The notes under the pieces: model-generated
Told to the model about the DNA's origin: nothing
Seen by the model: only the letters and a program-made list of their open reading frames with translations
The model's database searches: none
Part shown: piece after piece, positions 4,894-8,305 of the stretch
Layout of the letters: each line of letters begins with the position of its first letter
Numbering within the stretch: position 1 is the first letter of the stretch
Program-made: the position numbers and the translations under genes
NCBI GenBank assembly: GCA_031310005.1
Contig: CM062382.1
Location: 992,001-1,056,000, forward strand
DNA length: 64,000 nt
From: Dactylellina haptotyla
Lineage: Eukaryota > Ascomycota > Orbiliomycetes > Orbiliales > Orbiliaceae
Reading direction: 5' to 3'

Positions 4894-4980
4894 ACCACCA
4901 CCACCACCACCACCACCACCACCACCACCACCACCACCACCACCACCACCACCACCACCACCACCACCACCACCACCACC
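4894..4980 (+). repeat. (ACC)29 trinucleotide microsatellite
   Basis: There are 87 bp of uninterrupted ACC repeat. Read in one frame it is a poly-histidine run of a spurious short ORF (4740-4994). Its position just 5' of the TATA box and about 170 bp before the antizyme ATG makes it a promoter element rather than coding sequence. Confidence 0.9.
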
Positions 4981-4993: not shown

Positions 4994-5149
4994 AGGCCGG
5001 TCCATCGCTATCGCCAGAGAGCACAAACTATCCCAACAATTTTAATCTCAACCGCAAAACTGTCGTCTGTCAGCGACACCGTCCCAGTCCAACAAACCCC
5101 GAAACCCGTTCCCACGAGTAACCCCGACAAGCAGTCAAGCTGGAACGTC

Positions 5150-6213
5150 ATGGCGACCATGTCAAATTTATCTAGTAATACGAGTAGTAATAATCAACAT
5201 CTCATCCACGATCTCATCACCGTCGAGGAGGCCCGAAGCCCAGTCCTCGCCTCCTGCTTTTCTACTGATGTCTCCGCTACGGCTGTCCGCTCGTTCCATT
5301 ACTCTTCGACCCGGGCGGGCGGGGTAGAGGTAAATTACAACCCCCCTACAAACATCTAGGAAAGGAGTGTGAATGCTAACGTATCGAACAGTGGTATCCC
5401 TGAGGTCCCTAACTCACCTACCACCAACTCCCGGCGACAGACCTCTCCTAGTCGCCAGGGAAGGTGGGCGGCGCGTACCATTATCGCAGAATGTGAGAGA
5501 CTCTGCGATGGTGTCATGCGTCAGGTCTTCTTCGGTTATGGAAGGAAACCTGCGCAGTCACCTACTATGGACGTGTCGTTGAAAACTACTCCAGGAGGGA
5601 CCGGCAACAGCATCATTCTCAGCGTCGGCAACAATGTCGACGTACCTCAGAAGCCAAATACCCCGCCCGAGACCACCGCCATCTCGTCTCCTCCCAAGAC
5701 GTCTCCCACGAGGAACACCGTCAGGAGATTGACGAGACGTTCGTCTGAACTGCAGACGAGAATCGCAGCCTATCTCGAAGTCTTCGATTACGTCGGTGGA
5801 AGCGCATTCCGTGGATTCGTATCCGAGAAAGGTCCATTGAACAAGCCCGAGAGATCTCTCTTCTTGTTTTTCGACAAGGGTGTTAACGGCACCGAGCTCA
5901 AATCTGGACTGGTCGCTCTGATCGATCTTGCTACCGAATGCTTTGACTGTCAGGATCTTGTCATCTGTCTCGATCGGGAAACCGACGGACTTGGTATGTT
6001 CTTCCTTTTATATCTTTAATATTCGTATATACATATATGCTAACAAAACCTGCAGACTCGCTTGTACACAACCTCGGATGGGTCGGTCTGGAGCTCATCA
6101 CCCTGAAGAACTGGGCCTCCCCAGACCTTCAAGACAAAGCCACCTCAGCTCACAGACTTGACAAAGAATACTTCACCTCTAACAAATGGTTGTTCCTCGG
6201 AATGGAATTGTAA
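5150..6213 (+). CDS. OAZ1: Ornithine decarboxylase antizyme (programmed +1 frameshift)
   Basis: Antizyme binds ornithine decarboxylase, sends it to the proteasome without ubiquitin, and limits polyamine uptake. Exons: 5150-5329, 5392-5993 and 6056-6213. Frame 0 covers 60 codons of exon 1, then after splicing reads TGG TAT CCC and stops at TGA (5401-5403). A +1 shift at CCC-TGA continues GAG GTC CCT and stays open to TAA at 6211, giving about 312 aa. The C-terminal part has the conserved antizyme fold: YLEVFDYVGGSAFRGFVSE, LVALIDLATECFDCQDLVIC, then LGWVGLELITL..W and the ending KWLFLGMEL. Known antizyme genes use a TGG-TGY-TCC-TGA-like site, so the match is strong. The intron before exon 2 has branch TGCTAAC. 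Polyamines are expected to stimulate the shift. An alternative start at 5159 would lose three residues. Confidence 0.93.
5392..5410 (+). promoter_or_regulatory. +1 translational recoding site of antizyme
   Basis: The spliced reading TGG-TAT-CCC-TGA-GGT begins at the first base of exon 2, so the cassette is assembled next to the splice junction. Frame 0 terminates at 5401-5403, and skipping T5401 enters the long downstream frame. In unspliced RNA frame 0 would instead reach a TAG at 5357-5359. Confidence 0.88.
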
Positions 6214-6916
6214 ATAACACACCCCCAAAAAATGAACATAGAAACGACGGATGAACACCCCCAACCCCAAAAGCGACAAAGAAAAAAGTTTTAATGGCAG
6301 TCAACGAACAAAAGTAGCCAAAAAGATGGACACTTACTGAAAAGTCTTGGTTTATCTTTTTTTCTCTTCCTCCTCGGTCATTCTTTCTTCCTTTCCATGC
6401 GGATATCCTGCGATTCCTTTTATTCCTTTTTTGATGCGTCTTTTTTACTATTACTTCCTAGCGAAAATCCTTTGGTCCTGTTATACTGGCGGTTTTTGGT
6501 CCTTCTTATTGAATCGTGCCGTTGCCTGGCCCCCCCTTTTTTGCTTAACACTGCATTAATGCTCTGTTCGTTCATGTATTACAGTTTATATCTTTCGTTA
6601 GTATTGATCAGCCAGCCTCTCTTGAGGTCTGCGATATTACAAACCACTTCTCTCTTTTCCATTTTTCGTAACGTTTCTGATATAGTTTCGTTCCTTGTGT
6701 AAAATACAACGTGCCAACACCCTTCCATGTTGCGCTACTCCAATATTCGATTCTAGACGGTCTCCATTCTTGATACAACTGCAACGTAGAAACCTAAAAA
6801 CTCTAAAATACTCAAACCTTCTTCCTGATTCCTTCTCCTTTCCACCGCCTCTGTCAGTTCGGTATCGCCTTCAAACCTCCTCCATTGCTCTTGCACCCTA
6901 TAACAACACTGTAGCC
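6214..6916. other. Intergenic: antizyme 3' region and HNH gene 5' region
   Basis: The first part is A-rich, probably the antizyme 3' UTR. It is followed by T-rich, pyrimidine-rich sequence (6340-6700) leading to the HNH gene. Hydrophobic frames here are products of T-richness and show no domain. Confidence 0.5.
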
Positions 6917-8305
6917 ATGAATGAAATTGAGCTTACCACACCTTTCGTTCCCATTCGCAGGGAAAATCCCGAGGTTTTCTTCAACGCTGTTGAGCACCTT
7001 GAAGCATCTACGATGGTAGAACGTTACGAAAAGTGCGTATTGCAAGGAATAGCCATGTCAACAACGAATCTAGATCTCCTGAAGATCATCCCTAATCTTG
7101 AGCCACCGAAATTACGAGAGTTGGCTCAGCTCTCCATGATCGCGCTAAAGAATCTCAGAAATTGGTCCGGACGCCCAAGTTCAGCTATCAATAGTCCAAA
7201 CGCCAGCAGCACAGCCACGCCCACTAGGGACAGACCCACTGGAACTTCACCCTCTTTTATGTCTGCCGTCATTAGTAGGCTCCAGACCTTACGAGAGAGT
7301 CGAGAATCTTCCGAAGATGATTCTACCACGCCGAGTGGTCCATTTCCTCTACCTCTTGGTATATATTCCCAAGAACTCGTCTATATATTTCAGCTATCAG
7401 CATTTGCTAAGAACCCTCGCCATCGAAAAGCGTCCTGTATTATCCAAAAACTTGGAATCACCCGCGAAGATCCCGGGCTTCCTTCTAAAGTCCGTAGAGA
7501 CACCGACTATACCGACTATACTAAAATTTGCGAACTACGAGAGCAGGGAAGATGCCTCATAACTGGGGAAACAGCTGTGGGCGACAAAATCGCACATATA
7601 TTTCCGTTCCCTGTTCTTCAGGATGATAACCCGGGTTATCAACACACTTGGAGGTTCATCGTGATCCTTCTGGGCGAAAATATGAGGGACACGCTGGTTA
7701 AACACCTCGTTGACGAATTCTGGGGAGTACACACACCTGCGAACGGAATGCTCTTATCCACTAATATTCATGGGAACTACGCCTGTGGCCATTTAAGTAT
7801 CATTCCTGTCAAAAGGTCAAAATCTCCACCTTTCTACCTTGATGTTAGATGTAATCGACACCTGCCCGCGGATCAAACTCTGCCGTTTGTCAAATACCCC
7901 GCGGATCCCAATGAACAGTTTATATTTGATAGTGAAGGACATCAGAGGAATTTTACAGGTGAAAGCCGTTCCCTCAACGATGGTGATATTATCCGAATCG
8001 CCTCACCAGATGACGAAACCCCACTCCCATCGGAGACCTTGTTATTCTGGAATGTATACGTGTGGCGTATTCTGGGCACGGTTGCATTAACGGGACCGTA
8101 TGGTCCAGAGTTCGCCACGCCTGCAGAGGGTAAAAAGGCCCTAGCAAAGATGAGAGCATCTCTGAAACGCAAGCTTTCCAATGACTGGTACGAGAGGCGT
8201 CGTAGTCGTAAGTGTTTTGATGAGCTACCTCACGAGGGGTATGAGGGAGGAGATCGCACGTGGGAAGGAAGATTTGGTGGTGATTCTGATATTGGTGATG
8301 GTTAG
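6917..8305 (+). CDS. HNH_2-type endonuclease-domain protein
   Basis: 462-aa single-exon protein. Around residue 210 it has the hallmark of the fungal HNH_2 domain (Pfam PF13391): RCLITGE, then the AHIFPF motif whose His is the predicted catalytic/metal residue. Further on are a NGMLLSTNIH-like core and a LLFWNVYVWRIL segment common to the family. Members are abundant and often expanded in Pezizomycotina; no substrate or pathway is established. The N-terminal 200 aa are helical and then Ser/Thr-rich. I chose the ATG at 6917 (GCCATGA context); the frame is open upstream but has no ATG there. A GT..AG pair at 7359-7393 is too short (35 nt) to be a convincing intron. Confidence 0.75.
   Translation: MNEIELTTPFVPIRRENPEVFFNAVEHLEASTMVERYEKCVLQGIAMSTTNLDLLKIIPNLEPPKLRELAQLSMIALKNLRNWSGRPSSAINSPNASSTATPTRDRPTGTSPSFMSAVISRLQTLRESRESSEDDSTTPSGPFPLPLGIYSQELVYIFQLSAFAKNPRHRKASCIIQKLGITREDPGLPSKVRRDTDYTDYTKICELREQGRCLITGETAVGDKIAHIFPFPVLQDDNPGYQHTWRFIVILLGENMRDTLVKHLVDEFWGVHTPANGMLLSTNIHGNYACGHLSIIPVKRSKSPPFYLDVRCNRHLPADQTLPFVKYPADPNEQFIFDSEGHQRNFTGESRSLNDGDIIRIASPDDETPLPSETLLFWNVYVWRILGTVALTGPYGPEFATPAEGKKALAKMRASLKRKLSNDWYERRRSRKCFDELPHEGYEGGDRTWEGRFGGDSDIGDG

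What the first reader, a model, noticed from the sequence alone, without database searches (positions are those of the whole stretch)
5150..6213. Antizyme decoded through a spliced +1 frameshift cassette
Frame 0 of the spliced message ends TGG TAT CCC TGA, 12 nt into exon 2, while the conserved antizyme body lies in the +1 frame. The intron boundary sits directly at the TGG, so splicing and recoding are physically coupled: unspliced RNA terminates at a different stop (5357-5359). The shift codon is CCC rather than the common TCC, and the second codon is TAT rather than TGT/TGC.
Basis: partly seen in the sequence, partly recalled or inferred. Interest (0 to 1): 0.75.

Follow-up and report, generated by a model that had tools for sequence, protein, structure and literature searches.

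The report
Fungal antizyme gene with programmed frameshift
This is a fungus's gene for antizyme, the protein that caps polyamine production, and ribosomes very probably have to skip one base right after a splice junction to read it, as in most other antizyme genes.

Summary
Exon 1 (5150-5329, 60 codons) joins exon 2 at 5392. Frame 0 then reads ...GGVE^TGG TAT CCC TGA, stopping 12 nt into exon 2. Skipping T5401 opens 249 codons with the Pfam antizyme domain (E 1.7e-34), giving a 312-residue antizyme over three exons. Its closest named relatives are Orbiliomycetes. A public Arthrobotrys megalospora protein ends exactly ...GGVEWYP, and a database antizyme of Paracoccidioides reads ...WYPEVPSG. 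Best reading: ordinary +1 frameshifting at CCC_UGA, a rare but known site. It is a GAG site, second after the branch point. No RNA evidence was available. What raises interest: the intron splits the seven-nucleotide "module A" beside the shift codon; FHYSSTRAGGV occupies the window of the mushroom nascent-peptide stimulator, and its HY..T motif recurs across Pezizomycotina; a hairpin or pseudoknot candidate lies downstream. "Physical coupling" of splicing and recoding is geometry, not shown mechanism. New member of a known kind.

The parts
5150..5329 (+). Exon 1: start of ORF1, 60 codons, ends ...FHYSSTRAGGVE; second in-frame ATG at 5159
   Evidence: ORF1 of P0001, P0007 and P0064 is alike
5294..5326 (+). 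Codons -15 to -5 (counted from the stop, CCC = -1): FHYSSTRAGGV, candidate nascent-peptide stimulator
   Evidence: 28 of 29 ORF1-bearing database proteins have HY[SC][STA]T; in those 28 plus the window the G at -6 is kept in 28 of 29 rows. Window position as in PMC4505036. Function inferred
5330..5391 (+). Intron 1, 62 nt, phase 0; donor GTAAAT, branch TGCTAAC (A 5379), acceptor CAG
   Evidence: parallel to intron 2; no RNA data
5392..5403 (+). Shift site TGG TAT CCC TGA; module A = G5329 + TGGTAT 5392-5397, assembled by splicing; ORF1 stop 5401-5403
   Evidence: P0064 ends WYP, P0059 WYPEV
5403..5404 (+). Alternative acceptor AG (CCTGAG^GTCCCT) that would give a continuous 308-aa frame with no shift
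   Evidence: the gene model P0001 reads this junction
5402..5993 (+). Exon 2 part of ORF2 (+1 frame), EVPNSPTTNS... to ...RETDGL
5421..5467 (+). Candidate 3' hairpin (CCACC/GGTGG, CCC/GGG, GGCGAC 5433-5438/GTCGCC 5451-5456); GACCTC 5440-5445 complementary to GAGGTC 5402-5407 (possible pseudoknot)
   Evidence: predicted only, score chosen after seeing the stems
5994..6055 (+). Intron 2, 62 nt, GTATGT...TGCTAAC...CAG
6056..6213 (+). Exon 3, end of antizyme (...KWLFLGMEL*)

Best explanation
The gene encodes the ornithine decarboxylase antizyme (the only one found in this genome) of an Orbiliomycete-like fungus. Shown from sequence: three exons by splice signals; after removal of intron 1 the message reads ORF1 (63 codons) to UGG-UAU-CCC-UGA, and the antizyme body lies in the +1 frame. 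Inferred: a ribosome with tRNA-Pro on CCC and slow-to-decode UGA in the A site slips forward one base, so the tRNA re-pairs with CCU and decoding continues GAG-GUC. The 2 AGG tRNA-Pro genes found (inosine-34 would read both CCC and CCU; recalled) make that slip fully cognate. Stimulation would come from module A (G+UGGUAU), possibly the FHYSSTRAGGV nascent peptide and a 3' RNA structure. High polyamines raise the shift, more antizyme is made, and it binds ODC and sends it to the proteasome (known for the family, untested here). Unspliced or unshifted messages give only short ORF1 peptides.
For: PF02100 E 1.7e-34 on the +1 product, nothing up to E 1 on ORF1. Predicted fold of the relative P0003: the only PDB matches at E <= 0.001 are antizyme chains 4zgy_B (1.2e-4) and 5bwa_B (5e-4) (mean pLDDT 71.7). 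One antizyme gene found in the 39.8-Mb genome; decarboxylase genes of the ODC family found. P0064 of A. megalospora ends exactly GGVEWYP. P0059 of P. brasiliensis fuses WYP to EVPSG. 19 of 64 database proteins read [x]G[IVFA]PE[VA] back across the site in the +1 frame, 16 of them with S first, which is what AG-TGG-...-CC-TGA-G gives. Residues 36-60 are 23/24 and 24/25 identical in P0001 and P0007 (P0002 has no ORF1 to compare; 2/5 aligned), and residues 64-101 are 38/38, 37/38, 37/38 in P0001, P0002, P0007. Both introns share length, branch TGCTAAC and branch-acceptor distance. tRNA-Pro: 3 UGG and 2 AGG, no GGG or CGG among the 5 pattern matches. UGG is strongly conserved as second codon 5' of the shift site (PMC5009743, passage).
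Against: No RNA, ribosome or peptide data. The acceptor at 5404 gives an equally complete protein and a public model matches it (P0001). In mammalian cells CCC_UGA in place of UCC_UGA lowered frameshifting (PMC5009743, passage). No DNA of relatives could be fetched, so third-position constraint on the cassette was not tested. For P0059 and P0064 only proteins were seen, not DNA. The Foldseek antizyme matches have low TM-scores (0.32 and 0.34 by query, 0.51 and 0.56 by target) and rmsd 9.6.
Confidence: 0.9

Rival explanations
1. No frameshift: the spliceosome uses the acceptor AG 5403-5404, removing TGGTATCCCTGAG with the intron, and ORF1 runs straight into GTC CCT AAC (GGVE-VPNS...), a 308-aa antizyme.
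For: Continuous frame verified. The gene model of Drechslerella stenobrocha, P0001, reads GGVEVPNSP, this junction. P0039 also resumes at VPISG.
Against: It leaves unexplained that the skipped bases match an antizyme shift cassette, and the WYP of P0064 and P0059. It needs the second AG after the branch (25 nt from A5379 against 12), with GAG context: in 20 unverified pattern-based candidate introns of the window (those of this gene may be among them) the first AG was TAG 9, CAG 8, AAG 2, GAG 1. Homologous gene models join alike upstream parts to many different downstream points, as expected of predictors dodging a frameshift.
Confidence: 0.06
2. Both acceptors are used, so one gene gives a frameshift-dependent (regulated) and a frameshift-independent (constitutive) antizyme. 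This overlaps with the best explanation, so the odds do not add to one.
For: The +1-frame Glu-Val after the shift (GAG GTC) supplies AG^GT in the right phase; the same arrangement is implied by P0001.
Against: The AG comes for free with UGA-G and Glu, so its presence needs no selection; weak acceptor; no RNA data.
Confidence: 0.1
3. Sequencing error or pseudogene: a one-base artefact splits a normal frame.
For: A single base separates the frames.
Against: Protein records of two other species imply the same break at the same place (P0064, P0059), both sides of it are conserved, and antizymes in virtually all organisms are built this way (PMC2375905, start of abstract).
Confidence: 0.01

Closest known systems
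Paracoccidioides brasiliensis ornithine decarboxylase antizyme (P0059, UniRef entry)
   Same: ORF1 ...FHYCTTVGTGAQWYP fused to EVPSG..., same WYP/EVP residues at the shift
   Different: Another class (Eurotiomycetes); 31% identical over 91%; only the protein was seen, so its codons and introns are unknown here
Arthrobotrys megalospora TWF281_009330 (P0064), with P0005 from a contig of the same length
   Same: ORF1 ends ...FHYSSTRAGGVEWYP (79% identical over 76% of the 63-aa query); P0005 carries the antizyme domain
   Different: Present in the database as two separate proteins; I saw no record joining them
Agaricomycete (Coprinopsis) antizyme mRNA (PMC4505036)
   Same: Stop-codon +1 shift, module A beginning with G of codon -4 (GAG works there too), 11-residue peptide at codons -15 to -5, 3' structure starting 19 nt downstream (here 20)
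   Different: Shift codon UUU, codon -2 CGU; peptide and 3' structure not shown to be related to those here
Mammalian antizyme 1 / S. pombe antizyme
   Same: UGA in the A site, +1 shift, UGG two codons 5' of the shift codon (the last from PMC5009743, as a general statement)
   Different: UCC shift codon (recalled for both species; one search gives UCC_UGA as the majority site); different 3' elements (partly recalled)

Membership tests
Ornithine decarboxylase antizyme (PF02100) | ODC_AZ domain above the curated cut-off | tested here: met
   118.6 bits against 24.2, residues 122-249 of the +1 product
Ornithine decarboxylase antizyme (PF02100) | Antizyme fold | tested here: met
   Tested on the relative P0003 (91% identical over 68% of the query), not on the window's own protein: antizyme entries rank 1-3 in PDB, two at E <= 0.001, at low TM-score
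Ornithine decarboxylase antizyme (PF02100) | Binds ODC and promotes its degradation | not testable with these tools
   An ODC-like gene is present in the same genome
Programmed +1 frameshift antizyme genes | Two overlapping ORFs, body in +1 frame relative to a short ORF1 ending in a stop | tested here: met
   on the message spliced 5329/5392
Programmed +1 frameshift antizyme genes | Known shift codon before UGA with UGG two codons upstream | tested here: met
   TGG TAT CCC TGA; CCC_UGA is a known minority site (PMC5009743, passage)
Programmed +1 frameshift antizyme genes | Break conserved in relatives | tested here: met
   P0064 and P0059; 19 of 64 +1 read-backs; protein level only
Programmed +1 frameshift antizyme genes | Mature mRNA retains the shift site | tested here: inconclusive
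   Splice signals favour 5391 over 5404; no RNA data
Programmed +1 frameshift antizyme genes | Shift occurs and rises with polyamines | not testable with these tools
   needs reporter or profiling
Nascent-peptide-stimulated antizyme frameshifting (Agaricomycete type) | Conserved peptide at codons -15 to -5 acting as peptide, not RNA | tested here: inconclusive
   Position and conservation fit; synonymous variation not testable without relatives' DNA

The most novel reading that the evidence does not exclude
Tandem 3' splice sites 13 nt apart (5391 and 5404) act as a switch: the proximal one puts the frameshift cassette into the mRNA (polyamine-regulated antizyme), the distal one cuts it out and fuses the frames (constitutive antizyme), so splicing and recoding are alternative ways to nearly the same protein, with the intron placed inside module A for that purpose.
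Probability: 0.1. Interest if true: 0.65.

Novelty: new member of a known kind. Interest (0 to 1): 0.35.

Why it matters
It adds an Orbiliomycete to the antizymes with a CCC_UGA shift site and suggests why public gene models of these genes disagree: predictors seem to choose junctions that avoid the frameshift. If the distal acceptor is really used, it would be a case of splicing bypassing programmed recoding. The HY..T..G peptide at codons -15 to -5, found in Orbiliomycete and other Pezizomycotina proteins, gives a direct test of the proposal in PMC5009743 (passage) that nascent-peptide stimulation of antizyme frameshifting is not confined to Agaricomycetes.

Tried and rejected
Rejected: sequencing error or pseudogene (relatives imply the same break). 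Rejected as sole reading: intron retention. The retained intron is 62 nt (2 mod 3) and would meet the +1 frame, but it stops at 5357-5359 here; P0007 reads as a stop-free retained intron in another organism, which can happen by chance. Of 22 donor/acceptor pairs that restore a continuous frame (donors GT or GC at 5250-5399), only 5330/5404 keeps GGVE together with VPNSPTTNS.

Led nowhere: viral-contig scan (44 pattern hits, no relative); Rfam over 5100-6300 (no match up to E 5); PDB by sequence (no match up to E 1); first tRNA-Pro pattern (6 hits against 3 in the control, none pursued); general tRNA search (62 matches listed from 63 scored candidates; 60 of the 62 re-scanned, no Pro among them); ARAGORN without introns on L071-L075. 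The minimum free energy of the 80 nt after the shift (-33.1; 3 of 200 dinucleotide shuffles, and 5 of 1000 synonymous recodings, as low) is not unique in the mRNA: of 86 windows, those at offsets 240 and 270 are lower (-33.3, -35.0). The pseudoknot score was reached by 1 of 2000 dinucleotide shuffles and 1 of 2000 synonymous recodings, and by 1 of 177 exon-2 windows, that one being the observed window itself; but the score was defined after I had seen the stems, and stem 1 overlaps the stop codon, which a ribosome at the shift site would cover.

Full report
What is there. The window is part of a 39.8-Mb, 11-contig genome. Exon 1 (5150-5329), exon 2 (5392-5993) and exon 3 (6056-6213) make a 940-nt coding message. 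Frame 0 gives 63 residues ending ...STRAGGVEWYP and stops at TGA 5401-5403; leaving out T5401 gives EVPNSPTTNS... for 249 residues to TAA 6211-6213, 312 in all. The +1 part matches Pfam ODC_AZ at 118.6 bits (cut-off 24.2), E 1.7e-34; ORF1 matches nothing up to E 1. AlphaFold on the relative P0003 (26-row alignment, mean pLDDT 71.7) finds antizyme entries 4zgy_B, 5bwa_B and 1zo0 as the first three PDB matches, the first two at E <= 0.001, at modest TM-scores. A six-frame genome search, which scores only its best candidates, gave two matches, exons 2 and 3 of this gene. Two PF02784 decarboxylase genes were found (the tool notes one TGA inside the better match, L003, which I did not look into); L003 reads like ODC (judged by eye from memory of the family).

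Whose it is. Of 14 proteins found with the full query, the 7 with Orbiliomycete names (Drechslerella, Orbilia, Arthrobotrys, Dactylella) are 72-91% identical over the aligned part; 6 are unnamed and one is from Chrysothrix, 32%. Arthrobotrys is in Orbiliomycetes; the other three genera I place there from memory. A profile search gave 63 proteins, with only the 7993 best candidates scored; with P0064 from the ORF1 search the set is 64 and not exhaustive.

Is the frameshift real? Three signs. (1) P0064, a 60-residue database protein of A. megalospora, is 79% identical over 76% of ORF1 and ends exactly ...GGVEWYP, so a gene model there appears to make the same splice and meet the same stop; P0005, with the antizyme domain, comes from a contig of the same length. 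(2) P0059, a UniRef antizyme of Paracoccidioides brasiliensis (Eurotiomycetes), runs ...GTGAQWYPEVPSG..., the same residues on both sides of the shift. (3) 19 of 64 database proteins continue the +1 frame backwards across the site as xG[IVFA]PE[VA], 16 of them with S as the first residue, which is what AG TGG NNN NCC TGA G spells in that frame; 9 of 64 read [AVG][EK]CPPL, as if the predictor took TG^GT of TGG TAT as a donor; 2 show W-x-P; 34 fall in none of these groups, 25 of them lacking the ORF1 motif altogether. Of the 30 of 64 that contain the ORF1 motif HY[SC][STA]T, 22 by my count continue x-A-x-G after the T and then go on in many different ways. My reading is that predictors splice around a frameshift; it also suggests an intron a few codons upstream of TGG in other classes. 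Both are inferences from proteins alone.

TGAG at 5401-5404 holds an AG. Exon 1 joined to 5405 gives GGVE-VPNSP..., one open frame of 308 residues, and that is what the gene model P0001 of Drechslerella stenobrocha reads. Against it as the main path: the branch point TGCTAAC lies 12 nt before the end of CAG 5391 in intron 1, exactly as in intron 2, while the rival AG is 25 nt away, second in line, and of the GAG type. In 20 unverified, pattern-based candidate introns of the window, which may include the two of this gene, the first AG after the branch was GAG once, with distances 8-22. It also leaves the cassette and the WYP relatives unexplained. I hold minor use of it possible (0.1).

How it probably works. 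CCC in the P site and UGA in the A site. An inosine-34 tRNA would pair with CCC and, after moving one base, with CCU. That tRNA-Pro(AGG) carries inosine is recalled, not tested. Module A is described as the 6-7 nt abutting the shift site, starting with the third base of codon -4 counted from the stop; GAG there gave about wild-type frameshifting, GAA less (PMC4505036, sections 23 and 29). Here that is G5329 + TGGTAT 5392-5397, so the splice junction lies between the first and second base of module A.

Candidate stimulators. (a) FHYSSTRAGGV sits at codons -15 to -5 from the stop, the window of the Agaricomycete nascent-peptide stimulator (PMC4505036, sections 22 and 27). Of 29 proteins picked by an ORF1 mark further upstream (about AS[CA][YF]), 28 have HY[SC][STA]T; the other, P0054, has a model that lacks this stretch. 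In an alignment of those 28 with the window the G at -6 is in 28 of 29 rows; H, Y and T are in every row because rows were picked by that motif. Two more proteins with the motif (P0028, P0048) lacked the mark and were left out. [quoted passage not shown] Whether the constraint is on peptide or RNA could not be tested, and the ASxY block upstream is about as conserved, so protein function is an alternative cause. (b) Downstream, residues 64-101 are 38/38, 37/38 and 37/38 identical in P0001, P0002 and P0007, against 42/70, 47/69 and 37/73 in the following linker. Here lies a hairpin from 5421, 20 nt past the shift codon, from which GACCTC can pair with GAGGTC at the stop codon. The statistics are in Tried and rejected, with the caveat that the score was set after the fact.

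What is not supported. Nothing shows that splicing influences recoding.

Literature seen: PMC5009743 (passages); PMC4505036 (outline with abstract, passages, and sections 4, 19, 20, 22, 23, 27, 29); PMC2375905, PMC3777964, PMC3432380 (passages); the remaining papers as search listings only; one search found none. Two papers I tried to open, a 2007 NAR antizyme survey (title recalled) and the 2000 EMBO J paper, are not held, so I cannot say whether the ascomycete intron, peptide or 3' element is already in print. My searches did not show it in the listings and passages I saw.

Noticed in passing
window 4894-4980: Long (CAC)n/(ACC)n microsatellite upstream of the antizyme start codon, probably 5' leader or promoter.
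   Followed up: no
window 6917-8305 (+): 462-codon ORF downstream with a weak HNH_2 match (E 5e-4, 20.3 bits, just under the cut-off of 21).
   Followed up: partly
G000 contig C11: 12 of the 62 tRNA matches lie on contig C11, all 12 on the minus strand, from 176 to 229970: possibly a large mitochondrial genome.
   Followed up: no
L004 (G000:C5:2485016-2485705): A second PF02784 decarboxylase-like gene beside the ODC candidate L003; its role (paralogue, or antizyme-inhibitor-like) was not examined.
   Followed up: no
L071-L075: The five tRNA-Pro genes found carry 16-21-nt introns and were missed or misread by ARAGORN run without introns.
   Followed up: partly
P0003, P0005, P0006: Three Orbiliomycete antizyme fragments are labelled 'Oligosaccharide translocation protein rft1' in public records, probably a mislabel.
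   Followed up: no
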